Origin: Planoprotostelium fungivorum
Lineage: Eukaryota; Evosea; Variosea; Cavosteliida; Cavosteliaceae
Direction: 5' to 3'
NCBI GenBank assembly: GCA_003024175.1
Contig: MDYQ01000333.1
Location: 1 to 20,075, forward strand
DNA: 20,075 nucleotides
Below are positions 791 to 19,555 of the stretch, piece after piece. The translations under genes and the position numbers were made by a program. Position 1 is the stretch's first letter; each line of letters starts with the position of its first letter. Below the pieces are notes generated by a model. It saw nothing but the letters and a program-made list of their open reading frames with translations, was not told the DNA's origin and did not search any database.

Positions 791-795
791 TTATT
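790..795 (-). terminator. AATAAA overlapping the HIRA stop codon
   Basis: On the minus strand the sequence reads GAATAAAT, so a canonical poly(A) signal shares bases with the TAA stop of HIRA. Whether it is used is inference. It would give a very short 3' UTR, fitting the crowded convergent arrangement. Confidence 0.4.
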
Positions 796-3700
796 CCACA
801 CGATGGATGACTTCTCTGATGTTGTTACACAACCGCTGCAGAGACCGATTCTGGCTCACGATGCTCAACATTTCCTTCAATAGATCCCTTCGCGTCATGT
901 TCTATCCTCTATCAGTTTCCATTCCTCATGATGTGAAGTGATTGACCATCTCACCAAGATCTTGGCGTCCATGCTCTCAGAAGAGTTTGATAGGAAGAGT
1001 TCGTTGAGCTTGGCCTCTGCTCCTTCTGCTGTGAGACGTCTGACGTAGCTCTTGAGCCACTCTTTGTATTCGTTGGGTGACTCTAAGAGGATGGAGGAGG
1101 CCATCTGATGTTCGAGGTAGTAGATACTCTGACTGTTCTTCTCTTGGGAGCTATTGTCGCTGATTCTGGCGTGTCTCTGGCTGGTGGCCTGAAGAACATG
1201 AGATCGTGAAGAGATGAAGAGATGAAAGTATAAAAGGTGAGATGAGAGACGGTGTGATACCTGTATAGATGATAGGATGCCACGAGTTGCCATGGGAAGA
1301 GTCGTCCTGGTCTCTGCCTCACTAAACTTCTCATCCGATATCTATCCAAAGAGTGAGATCATCACCGCTGCAGGTGACATCACCATCATCCACGATCTCA
1401 TCATCAGGTGATAAACGAAAGATCTTCCATCAGTCAGAGTCACCACCGCCTTACCCTTCTCCGTGATTCTAGCCGCCCCTACGTTACTTTCAGTCACATG
1501 ACTCCATCTACAACGTTGTAGACTCACGTAAACCGGCGGACAAGAGACTGTGGGGCAGGGGAGCGTCGAATACACAAGCTTCACGAGATAGATCGTAGAG
1601 GTGACACTGTCCATCACATGTGATGACAAAGAGGAGATGTTCTTCAGATCTCTCCAAGAAGGCTATGCTGTCGCTCAGCTGGATGCTGGGAAGGATCTGA
1701 TGACGTCAGATGACGTCACTGTGACGTAGACTCACGTAACGACCGTTGTAGGAGTAGAGGTAGAGGAGTCCTCCTTCACATCCCGCAGCGATGAATCTGT
1801 CGTTTTCATTGGTACAAATAAAATTGTCACATTTGAATCTTCTCTTCACAAATGAATAAAAAATGATCGAAAAAACATGAAAGGTGAGAAAAAATGTAGA
1901 ATGTTTCTCACTTGAAATTTCCAACGAGGTGAGTGATCTTTTTCTTCAAAAAATCTTCCCACAGTTGTCTCCCAGCGTAAGCTGCAATTCTACCGGTGTG
2001 GTCTGCCTCCACCGTCACGACTTGGGACATCTGTCCCAGGGCAAACTTGGAAGTCCCAATTTCGATGGACAGACGATCTGGAGCGGTGGTGGGATTGATC
2101 TTTGGAGGTTGAGCTGTGTTCGTCTCTTCCTTCTTCTCTCTCGGCTTCTCCTTCTCTTTCCCCTTCTCCTTCGCCTTGTCTTTCACCTTGTCCTTCTTCT
2201 CCTTCGTCTACAACGCGTCACTTTGTGTCGTTGCGAAATTTCGAGGAGATTTCTCACCTTGGATTTCTTCGTGGGGGTCTCCGGAGTGTCATCGGAGATT
2301 TCGGTGAGTTTTCTCTTGGTCTTCTCTCTCTCTTCCACTACCATCCCGTCCCCTCCATCAGACGTGATGTTTCCGTGAGTTTTCTCCTTCACGGGTGAAC
2401 TCTTCTCTACGTTCACGACGGCGGGTGTCGCAAATGGATTTGGAACGGCAGTGGGGGATTTGGCAGGTTGTAGATGGGGTTTCTGTGACGTCATGGGGGT
2501 GGAGGGGGTGGGAGGGGCCGGAGCGGTGGAGGGCGTAAGCTTCGGAGTGACCGCGGAAGATTTCGGGGCTAAAGTGGGCGCGGGAGGGGATTTGTTCGCT
2601 GAACGGATCAGATCCATCTACAACGTTGTAGATGCTCACGCGACAGAAAAACGGGGACGATCCTCCGCTTACCCCCCTGGACGATTTCTCTCTGTTTCTT
2701 CATGTCTATCGAATGGTGAATCTTCACCATCTACAACGCGTCCACTCACTGTCGGTGTTGACGACGATGGTGGGACGATTGGGCTCTGCTGCCTTGGGCT
2801 CCGGGCTTTTTTCAGTTTCAAGTTGAAAAGGAGTCTCAGCGAGTTGAGGTCTCGCCGTGATGTTGTATCCACCGTACAATTTTCTCATCATCTCTTCTGT
2901 CTCTTTTGCTCCCATGGCCTGTCATTCAATCAATCGATGGAGATAATCGTCGATGTGATTCGAATCGATGATGTAGGAGACATCGTTGATGTGATGCGAC
3001 CCATGGATGTGATGTAAATGGTTGATGTAGGTGACGTCGAGTGATGGTGTGATGATTCACCTGACCGAGGAAATCATCGGGGAAGATCAAGACTGCCGCA
3101 GTTCCATCACTGGATACAGATACGAGATGCTTCCCATCGGGTGACCATGCAGAATCCAAAACCGGCTGGAGGAATTGTTTCTACCCCGATCAACGAAATT
3201 TCCACGAAATATCAACGACACACCTTGATGACTGCAGCAGCTCTCATCGTTGCAGTGGACCACACACTGATGCCACAGTCACTCGAACCCGCCGAACAGT
3301 ACAACACTTCCGCTCCTCCCTTGACAAATACTCTGTGATTGAATCTCTTTGTGGAATCAACGAAATGTCATCGAAATTTCGTGCGTATCCTCACCGTGCA
3401 TGTCACCGAGTTGGTGTGTCCGACGAACTCGACCTTCATGTCCCAACTACCACGGTTGAGTAGAATCGTGAAGCTACCGCTGCAGCAAGCAATGATACCT
3501 CCCTCGGGTGACCAACTGTACACGTCATCACACGTCATCACAAGTCATCACACGTCATACAAGTATACTCACGACATCCTCTGAAACATGACCGGCTGTT
3601 GTTTCGTTTTTTCGAATGGCTTATCGATGGAGGCCTCCAATTGCCAATCTGTCGTTCTCCACACTCTCACTTGTTTGTCTTCCGATTGGGATACAATGTA

Positions 3701-4603
3701 TCTACCTATGGGATCCCAACAGACACCCCTCACGAAACTCTGGTGGCCTTTCAAGATGGCCTCTTGTGCTATTCATAGATCAGTCGTGTTCGTCCTCTCT
3801 GTTCCTATTCAAACACAATCTTCTCACGAAAAATCGTCATTCTACGTCTCATGCTCAATCGAAGGGCAGCAGAGCGTAAGACATCGAATGGCGCGCAAGA
3901 TTTGAATGAAACGATCGAAAACTTTCTCACTCTTCGTGTTGAGATTCCACACGATGACATTGTTGTCAACCGAACCTGAGACGAGAAGATCGCTCGAAGG
4001 TGACCAACTCAAGTCTAAGACGTCTGCTGTGTGGCCCAGAAACTGAGCGCGAATCTGATGATGTTCATGAGATGAGGAGGAGAGAGGACGTATACCTTCC
4101 ACTGCTCATGTTGCTGCTCGTCGGATCCATAGACACGAAGAGAGTGTTGTGTTGACAGTTCGAAGACGAGAACTGATTTATCGTCTGATGCGGTGGCCAA
4201 ATACTTTCCATCAGGACTCCATCTGCACACGTTGACCGGTAACGTGTGGGATTCTGATCGATGTTACTTTGAGGTGAGAAAAGTCGAGAGGTGATCACCT
4301 ATGAGAGCGAGAAGAGTCGGTCCAGAATAATCCGGTTCGATAGCCGTAGAAACGAGTGCAGGGAAACTCCATATCTTGATCTTGTTATCTATTTCAAGAT
4401 GAATGACGAGTTTGTAAGTCTATAACGTTTCACCTCCACCAGCGGTCACAAATCTCTTTCCATCGGGGTGAATGTCGCACGAATAAATGGGTTCACCTGA
4501 TCATTACCATCAGTTGTCTCAACTACGGCAATCTATCATGTAGATGGATGGTCTCACCTGAATGCTTCACCCAAGGTGGCTTCGCAACCAATACCTTGCT
4601 CAT
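791..4603 (-). CDS. HIRA: Histone chaperone HIRA
   Basis: HIRA is the scaffold of the nuclear complex that deposits histone H3.3-H4 independently of replication. Exons in plus coordinates: 791-901, 955-1188, 1261-1341, 1384-1478, 1528-1696, 1736-1838, 1912-2207, 2258-2598, 2640-2705, 2750-2918, 3061-3165, 3224-3319, 3395-3515, 3573-3762, 3931-4042, 4096-4253, 4299-4388, 4434-4496, 4558-4603. They sum to 881 aa. The start gives [20 protein letters not shown], then [15 protein letters not shown], like other HIRA N-termini. WD40 repeats fill about residues 1-330 (e.g. [20 protein letters not shown]). A B-domain ([12 protein letters not shown], about 390-403) is the segment that binds ASF1 in animals. 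A K/P/T-rich linker follows, then the C-terminal Hira domain, ending [20 protein letters not shown]. The length lies between yeast Hir1 and human HIRA. The 3319/3395 junction is the least certain: a more natural acceptor near 3332 breaks the frame. It is divergent from the DUF1764 gene. Confidence 0.95.
1507..1522. repeat. 16-bp perfect palindrome in a HIRA intron
   Basis: TCTACAACGTTGTAGA lies in intron 1479-1527, directly after the donor (GTGAG then the palindrome, read on the minus strand). It is one of the two full-length copies of the intronic word described in the findings. Confidence 0.85.
2615..2634. repeat. 20-bp perfect palindrome in a HIRA intron
   Basis: CATCTACAACGTTGTAGATG is its own reverse complement over 20 bp. 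It occupies almost half of the 41-nt intron 2599-2639, starting just after the GTGAG donor. It is the longest copy of the recurring word in this window. Confidence 0.9.
2919..3060. repeat. GATG/CGATG-rich 142-nt HIRA intron
   Basis: This HIRA intron is about three times the usual length. It is made of degenerate GATG, TGATGTG and ATCGATG units, such as gatgtgattcgaatcgatga. Donor and acceptor join in phase 0 between the codons of LGQ and AMGAKE. It looks like a normal short intron expanded by replication slippage. Confidence 0.6.
3516..3572. repeat. CACGTCATCA tandem repeat inside a HIRA intron
   Basis: The 57-nt intron holds four near-identical 10-13 nt units (CACGTCATCA, with one copy reading CAAGTCATCA). 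Each contains the half-palindrome ACGTCA that also occurs in other introns here. Confidence 0.65.
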
Positions 4604-4689
4604 CTCGTGATGTTTGAATGAAAAGTGGGCGGGAAAATGTCATCGTTGTAGATGGTCACGAAAGAAAGAAGGACGAAAAGAGAGAAAGC
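4604..4689. promoter_or_regulatory. Divergent promoter between HIRA and the DUF1764 gene
   Basis: Only 86 bp separate the HIRA ATG from the chosen start of the DUF1764 gene (278 bp if that gene starts at 4882). The gap holds an E2F-like GGGCGGGAAAA at 4627-4637 and one CGTTGTAG at 4644-4651. There is no TATA box. The shared promoter is inferred from head-to-head spacing. Confidence 0.6.
4627..4637. promoter_or_regulatory. E2F-like site GGGCGGGAAAA
   Basis: On the other strand it reads TTTTCCCGCCC, matching the E2F/DP consensus TTTSSCGC. It lies 24 nt upstream of the HIRA start codon and 53 nt upstream of the DUF1764 ATG. Function is inference from the consensus and position. Confidence 0.5.
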
Positions 4690-5262
4690 ATGAGCGGAAA
4701 GGGTAAAGCAACGCCTGAGAAGAAGAAAAATGTCGTCACGACTGCCCCAAACAAAGCAAAGACAACACCGACAAAAGCAGTGACGAAAATCACATCAGCA
4801 AAGGTAGCACCAACGACGACACCTCCAAAGAAGAACAAGACGACAGAGGAGAACCCAAATGGTAATTGATTATGAGGGAGGATGGCTGAAGATGATGTGA
4901 TAGATAAGAAGCGAAAGGTGAACGATGATATCGACGACATCTTCAGTAAGACGCCGAAAGCATCAGCAGTCAAAGAACAAAAAGCACCCGTAAAGGTGAT
5001 GATTGATCCGACGATCATCAAATGCCATCGATCGATGATGCTGATGTATTATTAGAAAAGGAAAGAGAACGATATTTTCTCAGATTCTAGAGGCACCAAT
5101 TCTGATGGCCGTGAGTCATCCATCCATCCATCCTGACTCCCATTCACATTCCAATTAGGAAAAGTCATCGATGGCTACACCGTCTACTCATTCGATGAAC
5201 TCAAATTGGATCAAGGAAAGGACACACCAGATTGCCCCTTCGACTGCGACTGCTGTTTTTGA
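4690..5262 (+). CDS. DUF1764-family protein
   Basis: Four exons (4690-4861, 4892-4995, 5056-5110, 5159-5262) give 144 aa. The last exons carry the family signature: DDIDDIFSK, then DIFSDSRGTNSDGRKVIDGY, then the end TPDCPFDCDCCF at the stop. The cysteine-rich CPFDCDCCF terminus is the hallmark of DUF1764, a conserved eukaryotic family without a settled function. The five clustered cysteines suggest metal binding, but this is inference. The N-terminus is a basic, low-complexity K/T/P stretch. Two points are open. The first intron would be only 30 nt, the shortest here; translation could instead begin at 4882 (MAEDDVIDKK). An in-frame ATG at 4618 would put the E2F-like site inside the CDS, so I did not use it. 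It shares a promoter region with HIRA. Confidence 0.9.
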
Positions 5263-5515
5263 TTTCCTCCCTCATGCATCAGACACGAAGATTAAGACGA
5301 TGGAGGGTAGAGCTCACTCCTATCGGACGATATTCGAATTGATGAATAACAACACGGGATCGAAATGTTCGATGATTCACCATTTCTATTCCTCTTCATC
5401 ATCATCGTCTGTCGTATTATCATGCGCTTACGCCTCAACATTTGACTCTATAAGGAGAGAACCATCATATCATCTATGATGAATGATGCACGGAGCATAC
5501 TACACACAAACAACT
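5263..5515. other. Convergent 3' intergenic region
   Basis: These 253 bp lie between the stop of the DUF1764 gene (+) and the stop of the villin-like gene (-). They include a short tcatcatcatcg microsatellite around 5396-5411. I see no clear AATAAA and no gene. Confidence 0.5.
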
Positions 5516-8500
5516 TTATCTCCTTCCACCCCTTCGATTGCCCTTCTTCTTCTTGTTGTTCTTCTTTCCCTTCGAAGGTGAATTTTGGGACCGAGGTGAT
5601 GTCAGTGGCTGTTCTCGGTCAGACGAATTGGAAAGACACGATGATCCATCATCGATGAGAAGATGAGATGGAGAACAACTCACAGAGGCCAGAGGTGAAG
5701 AGGAGGGACTGTCGTCTGAGTAGTCGATAGAATCTGTCCTTTGAATGCCCAAGGGGGACTTTGTCTCTTCCTTCTGTTCGGACTAGATTTCTTTCAGCTT
5801 CCTTTCTACCCTCTCCATTCTTACCTCTTCTTTCTTCTCTTCCTTGTCCTCTTCTTTCTTTTCTTCCTTCCTCTCTTTTTTCTCCTCTTCTTCCTTCTCT
5901 TCCTTCTCTTCTTCTTTCTTCTCTTCCTTCTCCTCTACGGTTTCCGTCACTTCCGTTGTCTCTTTCTTATCCTCTATAACCTCCTTCTCCTCCTTCACTT
6001 CCTTATTCTCTACTTGTTCCTTCTCTTCCACTGCCTCTTCCTTCTCTTCTCGTACGATCTCCTTCTCTTGTTCCTTCCCTTCATTCTTCTCCTCGTTCTT
6101 CTCTTGTGTCTCCAGCTTCTCTTGTGTCTCTACCCTCTCTGTGTCTTCCTCTTCACTCTGGCTGATGACGTCATAGTCTTCCAGGTTCTCGGATGACATC
6201 TTCCTGGGTCGAATCTGTGATACGACTCTTCTCGTCACCCTGGTGATGACCGGTGAGAATTGTACGTTGGAGATGTCCTCCATGACCAGATCCTCTTCTT
6301 TCCCGCTCGATTCTTCCACGAAAGTTTTGGCGGGAAGAAGCTCTACCGGGGGTGTGGCCACCCGGGTGGAAGGATGATTGGATGAAATTTCCTCGATCTT
6401 CTCTTCTTCCTTGTCCCAGGAGAGGGGCTCGGCGGTTGCCACGGTGACGTGTGATGGAGAATCTGTGGAGTCTTCTGGATCCTCTGGGAAATCTTTGGAG
6501 CCGTAACGGTCTGCGACGGAGTATGCTGCGTACTCCTCTTCCTCTGAAGACACTTCTTCCTTGTCTGCCTTTGTCTCTTCCTTGTCTGTCTTTGTCTCTT
6601 CCTTCTCTGGCTCTGTTGTTACCTCTACTTCCTTTGTTTCTTCCTTCTCTGGTTGTGCTGTCTCCTCTGCTTCTTTCGTCTCAGTTTTCTCTTCTTTCGT
6701 TTCTTCTTCCACTGCCTCTATCTCCTCTTCTTCCTTCTCTGTCTCCTTTTCTTCTCCCTTCTCTGTCTCTTTCTCTTCTTCCTTCTCTGTCTCCCTCTCT
6801 TCTCCCTTCTTCTCCTCTTCTTCCTTCTTCTCTTCTTCCTTCTCTACTTCCTTCTCTACTTCCTTCTCTTCTTCTTCTTCGTCTGATGGCGGGAAATCCT
6901 TCGAGCCGTATCGATCAGCCACGGAGTATTCTTCCGGAACATCTTCCGATATCTCCGGGAGAGTTCCGATGGAGCTGGTGGCAAAGACAGGTGACGGAAT
7001 GTCATTCAGATGTCTCTCCATGGAGCTGCTGGCATCCATTGGCAGGTTGTAGTTTGACTTGACAGATCCCCTCCTCTCGTACATGGGTGAATCCTCCGTC
7101 TCTCCATCCTCCTCGTCCGTCCCTTCGGTCTGAAATTTCCGTTACATCCCGATGAAATTTCGGGGGAAACTCACCCTCTTGTTCGTTGTAGATTCGTATT
7201 CGGAATAAACTTGATCGCTGTCGTAAGAGACAGATTCAGCTCTTCGAGAGGTTTCCGGTGTGTTCATGCTGGCCTGTATCTCATTAATATTATATAATAA
7301 AATACATCGCATATCGTTGTAGACGACACTCACGTCACTATACGCTTCGAATTCCTGTCGTATGTCATTCATCGAAATTCCGTCGAAATTTCACCTCTTC
7401 CAGATCCTTCTCGATGTTGAGCAGCTCCTGCAGTAGACCCTGCTTGTATGTATCTCCCTCCGGTACAAACAACTGCAACACTTCTTCCTCCTACCAATGT
7501 CAGCAGAGGAGAAGGTCACGTGACTCACCTCGTTTGTATCTTGATCAACGACATCGATGAGAGATCCCCGGAGTGAAGCATCGCGTTCCTCGGAATCCGT
7601 ATCTTCCGTGGAAATTTCCTTGATGACGAGACGGTGAGGTGTCGTCGTTTTCTCTTGAATGGCGTCGGGGACTTCATCTTCCAATTCTTCCGGTACAGTC
7701 TGGTTGTAGATGAGAAATAGAGATAAAATGATGATTCACCTCTTCTTTGTCTGGGGTGGAGATGTCTTCGATAGTAGACGGTGGTTCTTCTTTCGTCGAA
7801 ATTTCGGTGGAGATTTCCTTCGGTGGCTCGGTCTCGACGGATTCTTCGGGCACAATGTTGTGGTCCGTTGTAGATGAGCTCTCCACCTTCAATTTCTGTT
7901 CCTCCAGAAAATTCTCCGAAATATCCGGAGCACTCCTGGGTGTATCCGGTATATAGATCTCCGCCTCGTCGAGTCTCAATTCGAGTCTCAAATTCTCCAA
8001 GGCCTGTTGGTTGAGCAGCTCCATCTCTGCCTCCCTCTCCATCCTCTCCTTCTCCTCCAACAATCTCAATCTCTCCAGCTCTCTCTGCTTCATGTCTTCG
8101 ATCCTCTTCTCTTCTTCGAAGCGTAAGAGACTTCTCGCTCTGGGGTCCATCGTCTACAACGTTGTAAATCGTCGGAAATTTCATCACGAAATTCTCTCAC
8201 GTTCTCCTTGTGATTCCAGGCGTGGAAATGTCGCGTGAATTCCCGAGGCTCTAGGGGTAGATCGGTCACCACGACAACGGGGACGGTTTCCATGCCACGC
8301 TGCTTGGCCGCCTCGATGGCGTATTTTTCGATGATCTCTCTACCCATCTTCTTTTCCGCCTCCGATGACCCAGTTCCCGCCCAAATGTACAGAGTACTGT
8401 GTGCGTCCTAATTTCCGTGAGTTTTCCATCCTCATCACAATAAAACTCACCAAGAAGAAGATCTCGTCTACGTTGAGATGGTTCTGAGTGTAGTTCAAGA

Positions 8501-11500
8501 TTTCCTTCACAGTAAAACTTCCAGATTTCGTAGAGCAGACGAACAGCCTGGCACCACCGCCCATGGACAAGTGAAAGCTGTCGTTCAGGTAGGCTGTTTT
8601 CCCGCCCAAAATTTCCCAGAATTCTTCCGGTTCTTTACCCTCCTGTATCCGGACGACTTTGGCCGGTTGTAGATTGAAGGTCTTCGATTTCGATACAAAG
8701 CGGGACAAGACGGGATCGACGAAATCTTCCGTACATAATTCTCCCTTCCACACGTACATCTGTCCCACGTGAATATTCCAGTATGTCTCCATCTACAACG
8801 GCCTCACCGTGCTACCCTCTCCCTTGTCAGCAGATTTCACGAGAAAAGTGTCGGCGGAATTCAATCTCGTCGGATCTACATCGATCTGTACGCATCGTAC
8901 GTTCTTCCCAAGTTTCCTGACGTGGTACATCTCCGCCTTCACGGCTTCCTTCTTGTAATCCTTCCTCTTACCCTGTATGACGTCATCACACGTCATCGTG
9001 ACGTCACCCCACCCTGTGTACGATGATGTGGTTCTCGAAGAGGGACATGAAGTGAGAGCCTTCCAATCGATCGATGACCCTCGCCTTGTTCGGAGCGTTT
9101 CCACCCGCCTCTAACAATTTCTTTTCGAGTGTGGGAAACCAACCGGAGCCCCACGTTGCGTACCTACCACCCGTCAGGTCACGTGATCGGTCACGTGACC
9201 ACCGTCTCACCACTTGGACGATGCGTCTTGACCCTGCCAGAAGTAGCACTGAGTGAATTGATTGTGATTTCCACCGTTGTAGATGAATAGAACCATGGAG
9301 GCGTCGCCCGACCAGAATAATCCACGATCATCTTCTTTCAATTTGATGAAAGTCGGTCCGATCATCTTGTCCAACACCCACAACTCGTAGTAACCAGTGA
9401 CACCTATTTTCCGTCAATCTTCCGTGGCTCGTTGTAGATGGATACGTACCCTCCAGTTCGTCGCCCTCGGGCATGACGAAGAATTTGGGACTGGTAAGTG
9501 GATCGATCAGATCGAGTGCCTCAATGATCTTCTCTTCCTTCACGATCTTCTTCTTTGCTGCAACGGTCGGGCGAGTCGTACCCACCGGAACGAACGAAAT
9601 CTACGCGAATTATCAACCGTTTTCCCGCCAAAATTCTCCTCACCTTTTCGTCGGGCCAGTCGCGGAATTTCGTCTTGAAATTGATTCTCTCGGCACCTTC
9701 TAAGACATGGTGGATCTGTACCCAATCGGGTCTCTCGTCTCTTGTCATGAGACCCTCGGCCACCACCTTTGCGATCCTCTTCTCTGCTTGTTTCGCCCTC
9801 TTGCCCATCCACACGAAGACCTGGAGGGTGAGAACTGAACGGAATCTCCGCGAAATTTCACCTCGGTCGTGGCGTCGATGACGTAACAGTGACGCGTGTC
9901 TAAGTCGGCTCGGAGTGGTTTCGTCTTCGTGTCTCTCTCGATGGGTGTCAATTGTAATTTACCGGTATCAGGGTTTAACCCGGTCCTACGATATCACATG
10001 AGACATCACATCGTATACATGATGACGTGTGATATATAGGTCACGTGACGTGTACGTACATGATGACGGTGTACTCTGGCTCCACGAAATCTGCGAAATC
10101 CGGTATGACCTCCGGTTTCCCGCCCAAAATTTCAAAGAATTTCTCCAAGTCCTCGTCCATGATGGGCTCTTTCGTGGCTATGACGTCATCATTACGTCAT
10201 TCCACGTCATCCAACTCACTGGACATGTCGATACACTGTGCCTCCAGATTTCTCTCCACCGTGTTGATGCCTAGAACAATGTTGTACGCGTAAAATCCGA
10301 GAATATTCTCCGCTTTTTCTCCCTTCCAGGAATAGATGAGGTCACCCAGATCCAATATGTAAGCGTCGTTCTGACTCAGAGATTCATAGTGGGGCTCCAC
10401 GTTGACCAGATTGACTCCGTTGCTAGGGTGACGTCAGTCGATTGTACAGATCGGACGACTACAACGCGCCTGGATTTGTTGGTTGAGGTCTCCCACTGTA
10501 CGCAGTACAGACGAGGTATGTCGAAGCGAGTGGCGTGGCAGGTTGTAATTGGCGTGTCCTTGTAATTTCTGAATTGATTTTCGGTACCTCCCTCCATCTT
10601 CTCCACTCCAAACGGAAAGTGTCCGTTGAACAGCACACTCTCCTCTCCCTCTTCCTACCCCCCGTCACCCGAAATTCCCGCGAGATTTCACCCACCTCTC
10701 GGTGTAGGGTCCCCCTGTCTTGCAGCAATTTGTTCAGTTCTACGGACCTCAGGGCGGCGATGGCAGTCTTGTCGGTAGATGATTGTGAACCCAGCCAAGT
10801 GTGGATGTGGATTCCCTTTCTCGACTTGTCCATATCGTTCTCGTCCGAGACGTTGAGAACGATGTAGGAGTCTCTCTTGTAGAAGGTACCCACGTCTTCT
10901 TTATCGATGGCTTCGGGTAATTTGTTGCGAATCATCCAGACGTACAGCCCACTGGTGGGTGTCAATGATTACGTCACGATATTTCGTGTGATATCGTGAC
11001 GCGGATGTGATACCGAGGGTGATGGTGGGTGATACGGTATGATATCGTGACTTTAACTTGAGATGTCACTCACGGGTCTTCACAGAAGCCAAACATCTCG
11101 TAGTAATCGGTATCTGCATTTGCGTAGTGGAACGGGTTGATCTTGTCCTTGTTCACCGCGGGTGCCGCGGGGGGTGGGGGAGCGGCAGGAGCGGCAGGGG
11201 GGTCGGGTACGACACCCTTCTTCTCTGACTGGTTCTTCTGAAGGGCACCGATGATACGGTTTCCTTGTTCTGCCATCTCCCGGTTCGAAGCGATGACTTC
11301 CTTGTAGTAGGCAGGCTCTTTCGCCTTCTTAGGCAGGTGGTTACTGAATTCTGCGAATGCGTCAGAGATCACGTGACCGATGACGTCATACCTTCCCAGC
11401 GGAGGGACAGTGAGTCTGCGAGTGCCTTGTCGAATTTGAGACCGCCCCGCTTCAGTTTGAGTAGATCGTCGGCAGATCCCAATCTCTTCAATCTACGTTT

Positions 11501-13542
11501 GATCTGCTCCATGTCGGGTAATACTTTGTGGACTCCACGCATGGACATCGTACGGGCAGATTGTAGATTGCGTCTGTCACGTGTGAGTCTCGGGGTTTTT
11601 AGTGACATTTCACTTTTCTGCCGCGGACAATTTCGATATATCGGGGGGTGCCTGCAGCTGCGACATGATGAACTCTCTCCTCTTCATTCTCGTGATCGTA
11701 TCCACGTTCGTCTACAACGAGTCAGGATCATCATAACATCTCGTGCGACGTCTCACCGAAGGTTGCCGTACAACGTTAGGATTGGACGTTCTCTTCCTCA
11801 TGGTGGCCGTGTTGGGGTCAGAAGCTGTTGCCACGTCATCATTACGTCACGTGACCTCCTCTCACCGCTCTTGCTCTCCGTATTCATGGACAATGGAACC
11901 TCTCCCTTCATCACGGCCTCGGATGGCATGGGCGGTGCGAATGTCTGCGAAACTTCACGATCGTGGCGCGTTGTAGACGGCCACTCACCACCGCATTCGG
12001 AGTTCTCCTGACGGACCCGATCGGCTGAGCCACCTGGGTCCTCTTTGTCGGTCTCGTCGGTCTGACAAAGTCTTTCGACTGTGCGTCCGCCGGTGGTGAA
12101 GATTTGGGGTTTTCCGCGGAAATTTCGGGAGATTTCGATTTCTCCGTCGACATTTTTTCACCCGAACCGGAACGCTCCAGTCCCTTCAACTCTGAAATTT
12201 CGAGTTTTCCGATACCCGAGGCCCTCTTTGGTCGCTCGATCTTCTCCTAGGCGTCCGTTGAGAACCTTCCGGGAAAATTCTGCTTCTCACCTCCTTCTCA
12301 CCGTATGGACTGACGAGTAAAACTTTATCGTCTAAATCGATGGCCTTCTCATCGCACTCTGGGTCATCGTGCATGACGACCGTGGGGACGCAGACGGGTG
12401 CGTGGTGCAGACACTTTCTATGCCCCAAGAAGAAACAATCCGTGCAGCGATAATACTCTGAGAGGGTCAATCTACAACGATGTAGATGGATCACCTTGGG
12501 GGGATAAGATGTCAGTGCGGCAGACCAGACAGGTGCGGGTGTCTGGGTGAGTTCTCTTCCTGAAAGGATGTGACTTGCAATCGATCTGATGGTAAAATGA
12601 GGAAATCATTGGCTCGTTGTAGACTCACTCCACCAGAATTTCTCGCTCCCCTGCTGTTACGCTTGAGGGTACCACCACTCAGCCTCTTCTCTTTCTCTCT
12701 CTCTTTCTCCCTCTCTTTCTCCCTCTCTTTCTCTTTCTCCTTCTCTGCAGCCATCTGCAGATGATATCAGCTCGTCTCTTCTCTTCTTGACTGACCTTGC
12801 TGTCTTCCGACCAATCGAAAAATTTCGTAGAGTTCTTCCTCTCCATTTTGGGTGATCCACTCGGGCTGCTCTTGTCCCTGGAGAATCAGAGAGGGAATAG
12901 AACAAAGAGGATGTCGTCTCACTTCGGGGCTTGAGAATTAGATAAGATGGAGACGGAAGCGACAGACTGGCCCGTCTGTGGTGGTTCCGCTTTACTCACG
13001 TACACGACACCGTGACCGATCAAGACATCCAGCCATGCCTTATGACGTACCATCAGAAGAGATCGTGGGAGATCGATGATGGATCACCTTGTAATCTTTC
13101 TGGCTGGAAGCTTGAAAGTATAAAAAGTAGGAAGCGTTGTTCGTCAGGTAGAAGACAAAATCTTTTCCAAAATGATCTGCCTTGATGGAAGACACACAAG
13201 CTTGGATGAGAGGATAAGCTCTGCCATGTTTCTCTTCACGGGCGAGTGCGCTCTAGTTCCGGTATCAGTGGACACATTGATTACAAGAGTGAGATGTGCC
13301 TCATAGGCAGGAGAGAGATCTCACCATTTTGATCGACTTGTCAAATAGCCATAGTACGTGCCTTTGGTCTTTTGGTAAAACTACATATCTGCAGACGACG
13401 TCACCGATATGTCCTTTAAAGAGTGGGCCGACTCACTTTTTCACCCATTTTTCAGAGTCTTGTGTTCTCATCTGAAGGTAACTGTCCTTCTCCTGCAGAA
13501 GATATCAATTGTCTTGTGACATCATTCCTTCTTCCTCACCAT
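5516..13542 (-). CDS. PH-C1-villin/gelsolin protein with acidic tail
   Basis: Exons in plus coordinates: 5516-5782, 5825-7129, 7175-7273, 7334-7354, 7395-7490, 7529-7699, 7740-8153, 8201-8407, 8451-8759, 8808-8972, 9013-9163, 9211-9403, 9450-9600, 9644-9820, 9862-9985, 10060-10177, 10220-10422, 10497-10654, 10696-10951, 11074-11350, 11392-11573, 11614-11711, 11757-11824, 11866-11944, 11989-12246, 12291-12457, 12495-12585, 12629-12754, 12796-12877, 12923-13038, 13088-13252, 13325-13388, 13437-13492, 13540-13542. They sum to 2138 aa in one frame. A PH domain (about 2-109) begins SYLQMRTQDSEKWVKKYVVL. A C1 zinc finger (about 210-257) has spacing H-x12-C-x2-C-x12-C-x2-C-x4-H-x2-C-x6-C. Six gelsolin repeats (about 611-1348) include GLYVWMIRNKLPEAI, YILDLGDLIYSWKGEKAE, YVIDATTEVFVWMGK and LYIWAGTGSSEAEKKMG. 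Then come a coiled coil and a roughly 435-aa E/K-rich exon. The tail is basic; no villin headpiece is seen. Likely an actin severing/capping/bundling factor recruited to membrane lipid by PH and C1 (inference). The start is an ATG-only exon. An in-frame 75-nt segment near 5608-5682 could be one more intron. Confidence 0.85.
6483..6930 (-). repeat. Duplicated peptide YSVADRYGSKDFP in the acidic tail
   Basis: The 13-residue peptide YSVADRYGSKDFP is encoded twice in the long exon, at about 6890-6928 and 6483-6522. The copies flank roughly 130 residues of E/K/T-rich sequence (units such as EKEEEKETEKGEEKETEKEE). The peptide is the only well-defined sequence in this disordered region. Confidence 0.85.
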
Positions 13543-19431: not shown

Positions 19432-19555
19432 GTTGGCTGTTCGGTGGAGTTGATTTGAAAATCTGATTTGGCGCCAAAACAAACTCACCAAAATTGGGTG
19501 ATTCTACAACGAGATACTTTGGTGATGGGCATCTCGAGATCGCACGACGATAGTA
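19432..19555. promoter_or_regulatory. Divergent promoter between kinesin-14 and SRP68
   Basis: These 124 bp lie between two start codons on opposite strands. They contain a perfect E2F palindrome (19467-19478) and one CTACAACG (19504-19511). The minus strand also reads GTGAG...CAG across the palindrome, so a small 5'-UTR intron of the kinesin gene is possible. Confidence 0.6.
19467..19478. promoter_or_regulatory. Perfect E2F palindrome TTTGGCGCCAAA
   Basis: TTTGGCGCCAAA is the ideal two-half-site E2F/DP element. It lies 36 bp upstream of the kinesin-14 start and 78 bp upstream of the SRP68 start. E2F control of mitotic motors is well known in animals and plants; its use here is inferred. Confidence 0.6.

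What the first reader, a model, noticed from the sequence alone, without database searches (positions are those of the whole stretch)
1479..12628. A recurring intronic word, CTACAACG/CGTTGTAG, concentrated in two genes
Seen directly: the 8-mer CTACAACG (either strand) starts at 1508, 1744, 2208, 2618, 2731, 4644, 7184, 7315, 7866, 8154, 8793, 9277, 9430, 10459, 11712, 11969, 12472, 12615, 18514 and 19504. That is about 20 sites, where chance predicts fewer than one in 20 kb. Thirteen are in introns, all in HIRA (4 of 18 introns) and the villin-like gene (9 of 33); the roughly 25 introns of the other genes have none. Nine of the 13 sit within about 20 nt of the donor (e.g. GTGAGTCTACAACG). In three the word forms the 3' splice site itself (CGTTGTAG at 2208, 8154, 11712). 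Two more are in divergent promoters. Candidates are an intronic splicing enhancer, a DNA-binding site in transcribed regions, or a footprint of a short intron-generating element.
Basis: partly seen in the sequence, partly recalled or inferred. Interest (0 to 1): 0.8.

Follow-up and report, generated by a model that had tools for sequence, protein, structure and literature searches.

The report
Recurring binding-site-like word in introns
Two neighbouring genes of an unidentified eukaryote carry many copies of a short DNA word, mostly inside their tiny introns, that look like landing sites for an unknown DNA-binding protein rather than splicing signals or mobile elements, although no experiment or whole-genome check backs this yet.

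Summary
CTACAACG occurs 22 times on either strand, at 20 places (0.31 expected). In my gene models it lies in 4 of 20 HIRA introns, 9 of 35 introns of a PH/gelsolin (villin-like) gene and 0 of 24 others. The 8-mer is the core of a longer motif, about CRTCTACAACG[AC]G[CT]C. In introns it takes both orientations; the exonic 7-mer uses three reading frames; two of three divergent intergenic stretches hold it. Introns carrying it show no end-to-end similarity, raised junction repeats, inverted ends or weak splice sites. A double-stranded-DNA recognition site therefore fits better than a splicing enhancer or an intron-generating element. GAAATTTC, TGACGTCA and CACGTGAC are nearly confined to the same two genes, and ACGT words within an intron repeat at about 10.5-bp steps. 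Best reading: an intragenic array of transcription-factor-type sites packed into ~45-nt introns. Protein, function and genome-wide distribution are unknown; no genome is held.

The parts
1479..1527 (-). HIRA intron with palindrome CTACAACGTTGTAG, offset 6 from the donor
2208..2257 (-). HIRA intron whose last 8 nt are CGTTGTAG (word forms the 3' splice site); also holds GAAATTTC
2599..2639 (-). HIRA intron with the 20-bp palindrome CATCTACAACGTTGTAGATG (2615-2634)
2706..2749 (-). HIRA intron with antisense word at 2731
7274..7333 (-). villin-like intron with sense word, offset 11 from the donor
8154..8200 (-). villin-like intron ending in TTTACAACGTTGTAG (word forms the 3' splice site); also GAAATTTC
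8760..8807 (-). villin-like intron with antisense word, offset 7 from the donor, and CACGTG
9404..9449 (-). villin-like intron with CCATCTACAACGAGCCA
10423..10496 (-). villin-like intron with CGCGTTGTAG and TGACGTCA
11712..11756 (-). villin-like intron whose last 8 nt are CGTTGTAG
11945..11988 (-). villin-like intron with CCGTCTACAACGCGCCA
12414..12494 (-). villin-like intron with near-palindrome CATCTACATCGTTGTAGAT
12543..12628 (-). villin-like intron beginning GTGAGTCTACAACGAGCCA
4604..4689 (.). divergent intergenic stretch HIRA / DUF1764 gene with GCGGGAAA (4629-4636) and CGTTGTAG (4644-4651)
19432..19555 (.). divergent intergenic stretch kinesin-14 / SRP68 with TTTGGCGCCAAA (19467-19478) and CTACAACG (19504-19511)
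2460..2473 (-). exonic variant CTACAACCTGCCAA in HIRA, read in frame as L-Q-P-A-K
8659..8672 (-). exonic variant CTACAACCGGCCAA in the villin-like gene, read as L-Q-P-A-K
7039..7052 (-). exonic variant CTACAACCTGCCAA in the villin-like gene, read as Y-N-L-P
7130..12628 (-). shortest run of villin-like introns (26 of 35) that contains all 19 introns holding CTACAACG, TGACGTCA, CACGTGAC, GAAATTTC or GCGGGAAA; permutation p = 0.0016 for so short a run
1479..3394 (-). shortest run of HIRA introns (9 of 20) that contains all 7 introns holding such a word; permutation p = 0.0043

Best explanation
CTACAACG is the core of a roughly 15-bp recognition motif (about CRTCTACAACG[AC]G[CT]C, sometimes two half-sites back to back) for an unidentified sequence-specific DNA-binding protein, used in some compact divergent promoters and, many times over, inside HIRA and the villin-like gene. 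Together with TGACGTCA, GTCACGTGAC and GAAATTTC words it makes an internal cis-regulatory array in each gene. The sites sit mostly in the ~45-nt introns because these are the freest DNA in a gene-dense genome, and some are merged with a splice site (GTGAG+TCTACAACG; CGTTG+TAG). Shown: the enrichment, the extended motif, orientation symmetry in introns, several reading frames in exons, intergenic occurrence, concentration in two genes, and helical spacing of the companion ACGT words. Inferred: that the intergenic stretches are promoters, that a protein binds, that it acts on transcription or chromatin, and that the companion words are bZIP-type and bHLH-type sites (names recalled).
For: 22 hits against 0.31 expected; 15 in introns against 0.18 in composition-preserving intron shuffles. 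Flank information beyond the 8-mer in 11 of the 17 non-coding sites (the other 6 are palindromic or nearly so and were dropped): 5.70 bits against 1.82 in random intron flanks, 0 of 5000 draws as high. Both orientations in introns: 6 sense and 9 antisense. CDS count of the 8-mer exceeds synonymous-codon shuffles: 5 against 1.35, 0 of 300 reach 5; exonic CTACAAC lies in frames 0, 1 and 2 (2, 2 and 4 of 8). Two of three divergent intergenic stretches hold it, one with GCGGGAA and one with GGCGCC. GAAATTTC 14 of 14, CACGTGAC 11 of 11 (7 places) and TGACGTCA 9 of 10 lie in the same two genes, which are 59% of the window. 15 of 17 same-intron ACGT pairs are in phase with 10.5 bp; 0 of 2000 shuffles reach 15.
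Against: One window only; no genome, transcript or useful relative could be consulted. The vocabulary words were chosen after looking. Helical spacing could come from tandem duplication of 10-bp units, which TRF sees at 1699-1718, 3520-3558 and 8978-9006. The five exonic exact copies lack the downstream G (0 of 5 at that column), and at least the kinesin one (EIYNE) looks like ordinary coding sequence. The excess of the 7-mer in coding sequence is modest (8 against 2.55, maximum 9 in 500 shuffles), and CACGTGAC is not raised there (0 against 0.66). The word is absent from the kinase/RRF divergent stretch. I had no motif database, so the motif was not matched to any factor.
Confidence: 0.55

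Rival explanations
1. Neutral propagation: short palindromic words spread inside these genes by local tandem duplication, slippage or copying between introns, without any binding function.
For: 10- to 12-bp spaced units in several introns. Two HIRA introns (1479 and 2599) share 28 bp at 93% from the donor through the palindrome; introns 3516 and 8973 share 18 bp and introns 10178 and 11825 share 17 bp at 100%.
Against: Outside the motif the CTACAACG introns share no common 6-mer in more than 2 of 13. The word occurs in two genes, in both orientations and in intergenic stretches. Coding copies exceed the synonymous expectation.
Confidence: 0.17
2. Footprint of an introner (a short intron-generating element) whose terminal repeats carry CTACAACG.
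For: The word often lies near the donor or forms the acceptor; TAG acceptors 7 of 13 in word introns against 18 of 66 in others (p = 0.10), and AG before the donor 2 of 13 against 25 of 66 (p = 0.20).
Against: All-against-all BLASTN of 79 introns gave 2 hits at E <= 1e-5 among 1352 at E <= 10, and both cover the palindrome and its neighbourhood without reaching both splice sites. Junction repeats average 1.0 nt in 13 word introns, 1.7 in 14 introns with another vocabulary word and 1.9 in 52 with none; inverted matches between intron ends 3.8, 4.9 and 4.2. The word also lies in exons and between genes.
Confidence: 0.1
3. RNA-level splicing signal (intronic splicing enhancer or aid to short-intron definition).
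For: Excess near donors (11 of 15 within 20 nt, p = 0.02) and at acceptors (3, p = 0.007). Coding copies of the 7-mer are all sense (8 of 8).
Against: No clear strand bias in introns (6 sense, 9 antisense); present in intergenic stretches; donors of word introns are not weaker (mean 2.8 against 1.9, p = 0.11) and pyrimidine content is similar (p = 0.23). 66 of 79 introns lack the 8-mer. Synonymous shuffles expect the antisense 7-mer only 0.25 times in coding sequence.
Confidence: 0.08
4. Chromosome-architecture or chromatin mark of long gene bodies (insulator, pairing or recombination site) rather than control of the host gene.
For: The first of the four main words lies 0.9 kb (villin-like) and 1.2 kb (HIRA) after the predicted start codon, and the last 0.65 and 0.7 kb before the stop codon.
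Against: Only two long genes are in view. The 2.3-kb kinesin gene holds only one CTACAACG and one TGACGTCA, and two intergenic stretches carry the motif.
Confidence: 0.1

Closest known systems
Human core-promoter motif M4, ACTAYRNNNCCCR (THAP11/HCF-1 binds the ACTAYR part; PMC5006282, passages read)
   Same: Shares a CTACA(A) core followed a few bases later by C-rich sequence; bipartite; a promoter element.
   Different: Base before CTACA is T in 16 of 17 non-coding sites here, not A; the downstream part is G[CT]C at another spacing; most copies are inside genes.
Introners (PMC9860276, passages read)
   Same: Short sequences associated with introns; the word sits at intron ends in several cases.
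   Different: No end-to-end intron similarity, no raised junction repeats or inverted ends, and the word is also in exons and between genes.
Intron-mediated enhancement and intronic factor sites, e.g. YY1 sites in the UbC 5'-UTR intron (PMC3680475, listing and start of abstract only)
   Same: DNA-binding-protein sites inside a transcribed intron.
   Different: That case is one 5'-UTR intron. Here the main words start 0.9 kb or more after the predicted start codon and are spread over many internal introns and some exons.
CRE (TGACGTCA), E-box (CACGTG) and E2F-type (GCGGGAAA, TTTGGCGCCAAA) sites (names recalled)
   Same: The companion words equal these consensus sites as recalled.
   Different: The ACGT words are packed into ~45-nt introns of two genes at helical spacing, rather than in a promoter or a long first intron.

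Membership tests
Introner | groups of introns with similarity reaching near both splice sites | tested here: not met
   79 introns all-against-all: 2 hits at E <= 1e-5, both on the palindrome and its neighbourhood, neither reaching both ends
Introner | target-site duplication at the junctions (found in a part of families) | tested here: not met
   mean junction repeat 1.0 nt in 13 word introns, 1.9 in 52 introns without any vocabulary word
Introner | terminal inverted repeats (found in a part of families) | tested here: not met
   longest inverted match between intron ends 3.8 nt on average against 4.2 nt
Introner | many copies genome-wide at new intron positions | not testable with these tools
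   no genome held
Intronic splicing enhancer | acts in RNA, so is strand-specific | tested here: not met
   6 sense and 9 antisense in introns
Intronic splicing enhancer | changes splicing when mutated | not testable with these tools
   needs experiment
M4/THAP11 motif | ACTAYR followed after three bases by CCCR | tested here: not met
   T, not A, before CTACA in 16 of 17 non-coding sites; downstream consensus is G[CT]C
Intron-mediated enhancement signal | concentrated near the transcription start (recalled) | tested here: not met
   first CTACAACG 927 bp (villin-like) and 1872 bp (HIRA) after the predicted start codon, used as a stand-in for the unknown transcription start
Transcription-factor binding site | orientation-independent in non-coding DNA | tested here: met
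   both strands in introns
Transcription-factor binding site | present in promoters | tested here: met
   2 of 3 divergent intergenic stretches, taken as promoters
Transcription-factor binding site | bound by a protein and regulatory | not testable with these tools
   needs pull-down, ChIP or a reporter

The most novel reading that the evidence does not exclude
In this eukaryote, tiny spliceosomal introns serve as docking cassettes: consecutive ~45-nt introns inside a gene each hold one word of a small vocabulary of DNA-binding sites, some phased with the helix and some fused with a splice site, so that one distributed enhancer is threaded through the gene body and removed from the mRNA by splicing.
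Probability: 0.3. Interest if true: 0.75.

Novelty: new variant of a known kind. Interest (0 to 1): 0.5.

Why it matters
If true, very short introns in a gene-dense genome are not free filler: they are a place to keep binding sites without disturbing coding sequence, which bears on why such introns persist and why their sequence is constrained. It would also give an unassigned ~15-bp motif and a testable link between intron position and gene control.

Tried and rejected
Introner, splicing enhancer, M4/THAP11 and intron-mediated enhancement were tested as above. A Myb-type site (CAACGG, recalled) was rejected because G follows the word in only 1 of 17 non-coding sites. A Pumilio-type RNA site (TGTANAT, recalled) was set aside because the word has no clear strand bias in introns. 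No Rfam family reached its gathering score. Codon usage alone does not explain the coding copies (5 against 1.35), though it may explain some. Branch-point use was set aside by inspection: the six sense copies in introns sit 6-12 nt from the donor, too close. Pairing of intron ends is not raised.

Searches for relatives led nowhere useful. The 20-bp palindrome has no exact match in viral contigs. Kinesin and gelsolin queries found no confirmed relative there. In genome contigs the whole kinesin found none, and its motor core gave one eukaryote-like kinesin fragment, L001, with one copy of the 8-mer. Literature: the 8-mer in its two orientations is held by 855 and 923 papers, of which 30 and 15 were listed; the listed titles are on unrelated topics and I take the matches for primers and other oligonucleotides, but I opened none. 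A search of CTACAAC with motif, MEME and intron terms (122 papers, 10 listed) and one on choanoflagellate regulation (2 papers) showed nothing relevant in the listings. CTACAA and TTGTAG do not occur in the main text of PMC2612703. In PMC2633312 I saw four passages on motifs and introns; the word is in none of them, but I did not search that text for it. I know of no report of the motif, and only these searches stand behind that.
Full report
What the window is. A gene-dense stretch of a eukaryote, GC 49%. I built gene models with my own splice-aware dynamic programme, hand-placed the five 5' introns of HIRA, and chose the RRF and SRP68 introns by hand from the alternative models. Pfam supports HIRA (-, 791-4603), a DUF1764 protein (+), a PH/gelsolin-repeat villin-like protein (-, 5516-13542; the first 1317 of about 2070 residues were scanned), a PH-domain kinase (-), a ribosome recycling factor (+), a kinesin (-) and the start of SRP68 (+); a gene at the left end has no Pfam match. 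The best solved relatives of the kinesin are KIFC3 and Ncd, so kinesin-14. There are 79 modelled introns; the median is 45 nt in the villin-like gene and 49.5 in HIRA. The models are predictions without transcripts; the tail of HIRA and a few odd introns (836-859, 11344-11372) are uncertain. The organism was not identified, and no genome is held for it.

The observation. CTACAACG occurs 22 times against 0.31 expected and ranks first among the 8-mers of the window by my over-representation score. 15 occurrences are in introns, 5 in coding sequence and 2 between genes. The word lies in 13 introns: 4 of 20 in HIRA, 9 of 35 in the villin-like gene, 0 of 24 elsewhere (p = 0.007). Shuffling intron interiors gives 0.18.

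The word is the core of a longer motif. In the 17 non-coding copies the three bases before it are C (13 of 17), A or G (16) and T (16). In the 11 left after dropping 6 palindromic or near-palindromic copies, the bases after it favour [AC] (10), G (8), [CT] (8) and C (7). These flanks carry 5.70 bits against 1.82 for random intron flanks, with none of 5000 draws as high. A matrix trained on the window finds 35 sites at 9.5 bits or more, 28 of them in the two genes, against a mean of 2.0 and at most 8 in 100 second-order Markov sequences; this comparison flatters the matrix because it was trained here. Five exonic sites with a slightly different core carry a GCC-type extension (starting at 2473, 7052, 8672, about 10547 and 11566 on the minus strand), whereas the five exonic copies of the exact word do not.

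DNA rather than RNA. In introns 6 copies are sense and 9 antisense. In exons the 7-mer CTACAAC is sense in 8 of 8, but synonymous shuffles expect the antisense form only 0.25 times; the sense count is 8 against 2.55, maximum 9 in 500 shuffles, so this part of the excess is modest. The eight lie in frames 0, 1 and 2 (2, 2, 4). The exact 8-mer in coding sequence is 5 against 1.35, with 0 of 300 shuffles as high. Two of three divergent intergenic stretches contain it: 86 bp between HIRA and DUF1764, which also has GCGGGAA, and 124 bp between kinesin and SRP68, which also has GGCGCC; the third, kinase/RRF (688 bp), does not. The 489 bp upstream of the villin-like gene hold only the 7-mer.

Not a mobile intron. 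Introners are recognised by intron similarity reaching both splice sites, and part of the families show TSDs or TIRs (PMC9860276, passages). Among 79 introns the only hits at E <= 1e-5 are two pairs that share the palindrome and its neighbourhood, one of them from the donor on for 28 bp. Junction repeats and inverted ends are not raised. Contact with splice sites is real but modest and has a simple reading: TCTACAACG can borrow the last T of GTGAGT, and CGTTGTAG ends in TAG.

A vocabulary, not one word. GAAATTTC (14 of 14), CACGTGAC (11 of 11 matches, at 7 places), TGACGTCA (9 of 10) and CTACAACG (19 of 22) lie in HIRA and the villin-like gene, which make up 59% of the window. Introns with at least one of five words are 7 of 20 in HIRA, 19 of 35 in the villin-like gene and 1 of 24 elsewhere (p = 1e-4); within each gene they fall in one internal run (9 of 20 and 26 of 35 introns; permutation p = 0.004 and 0.002). 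The words were picked after looking, so these p-values are optimistic. In coding sequence GAAATTTC (6 against 0.78), TGACGTCA (3 against 0.22) and GCGGGAAA (4 against 0.46) are raised over synonymous shuffles but CACGTGAC is not (0 against 0.66), so the feature belongs partly to the gene body as a whole, with introns as its preferred place. Palindromes of 8 bp are raised in introns (39 against 22.8, at most 34 in 300 shuffles) but hardly in coding sequence (49 against 45.5). Inside single introns ACGT words stand mostly 10-12, 20-21 or 30-32 bp apart: 15 of 17 pairs are in phase with 10.5 bp (the exceptions are 5 and 16 bp), from 7 introns, where shuffles give 3.9 pairs, a third of them in phase; of 12 exonic pairs within 35 bp about half are in phase by my count. 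AATT words show no such clear spacing. Helical spacing is what sites on one face of the helix look like, but tandem duplication of 10-bp units would give the same.

Mechanism. Most likely an unidentified sequence-specific protein recognises the motif in double-stranded DNA, and the run of sites in each gene is an internal regulatory array. Binding and effect are inferred. Rivals and the results that would separate them are given in their sections. The closest published motif that I tested, M4/THAP11 (PMC5006282, passages), fails on the base before CTACA and on the downstream half; no motif database was at hand. The class (intragenic binding sites) is known; the packing into consecutive ~45-nt introns is the unusual part.

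Noticed in passing
1479-1527, 1697-1735, 3516-3572, 8973-9012, 9164-9210, 10178-10219, 11825-11865: Introns with ACGT-core words (TGACGTCA, GTCACGTGAC and variants) repeated at about 10.5-bp steps; 15 of 17 ACGT pairs over these 7 introns are in helical phase.
   Followed up: partly
1914-12820: AAATTTC: all 31 either-strand matches of the window (17 places) lie in HIRA and the villin-like gene, several as CGAAATTTCG, in introns and exons.
   Followed up: partly
10952-11073: 122-nt villin-like intron with several TCACGATATC-type words, perhaps a further member of the vocabulary.
   Followed up: no
4604-4689 and 19432-19555: Very short divergent intergenic stretches pairing an E2F-like site (name recalled) with CTACAACG.
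   Followed up: partly
5516-13542: Villin-like protein model of about 2070 residues: N-terminal PH domain, gelsolin repeats (first 1317 residues) and a long K/E-rich tail encoded by CTTCTC-type repeats.
   Followed up: no
8598-8615 and 10116-10133: Two exons share GAAATTTTGGGCGGGAAA on the minus strand (coding E-I-L-G-G-K), and the intron 9601-9643 holds the similar GAATTTTGGCGGGAAAA.
   Followed up: no
L001:19-174: A 3.7-kb contig filed in a Planctomycetia MAG encodes a kinesin motor fragment 56% identical to the query, probably eukaryotic contamination.
   Followed up: no
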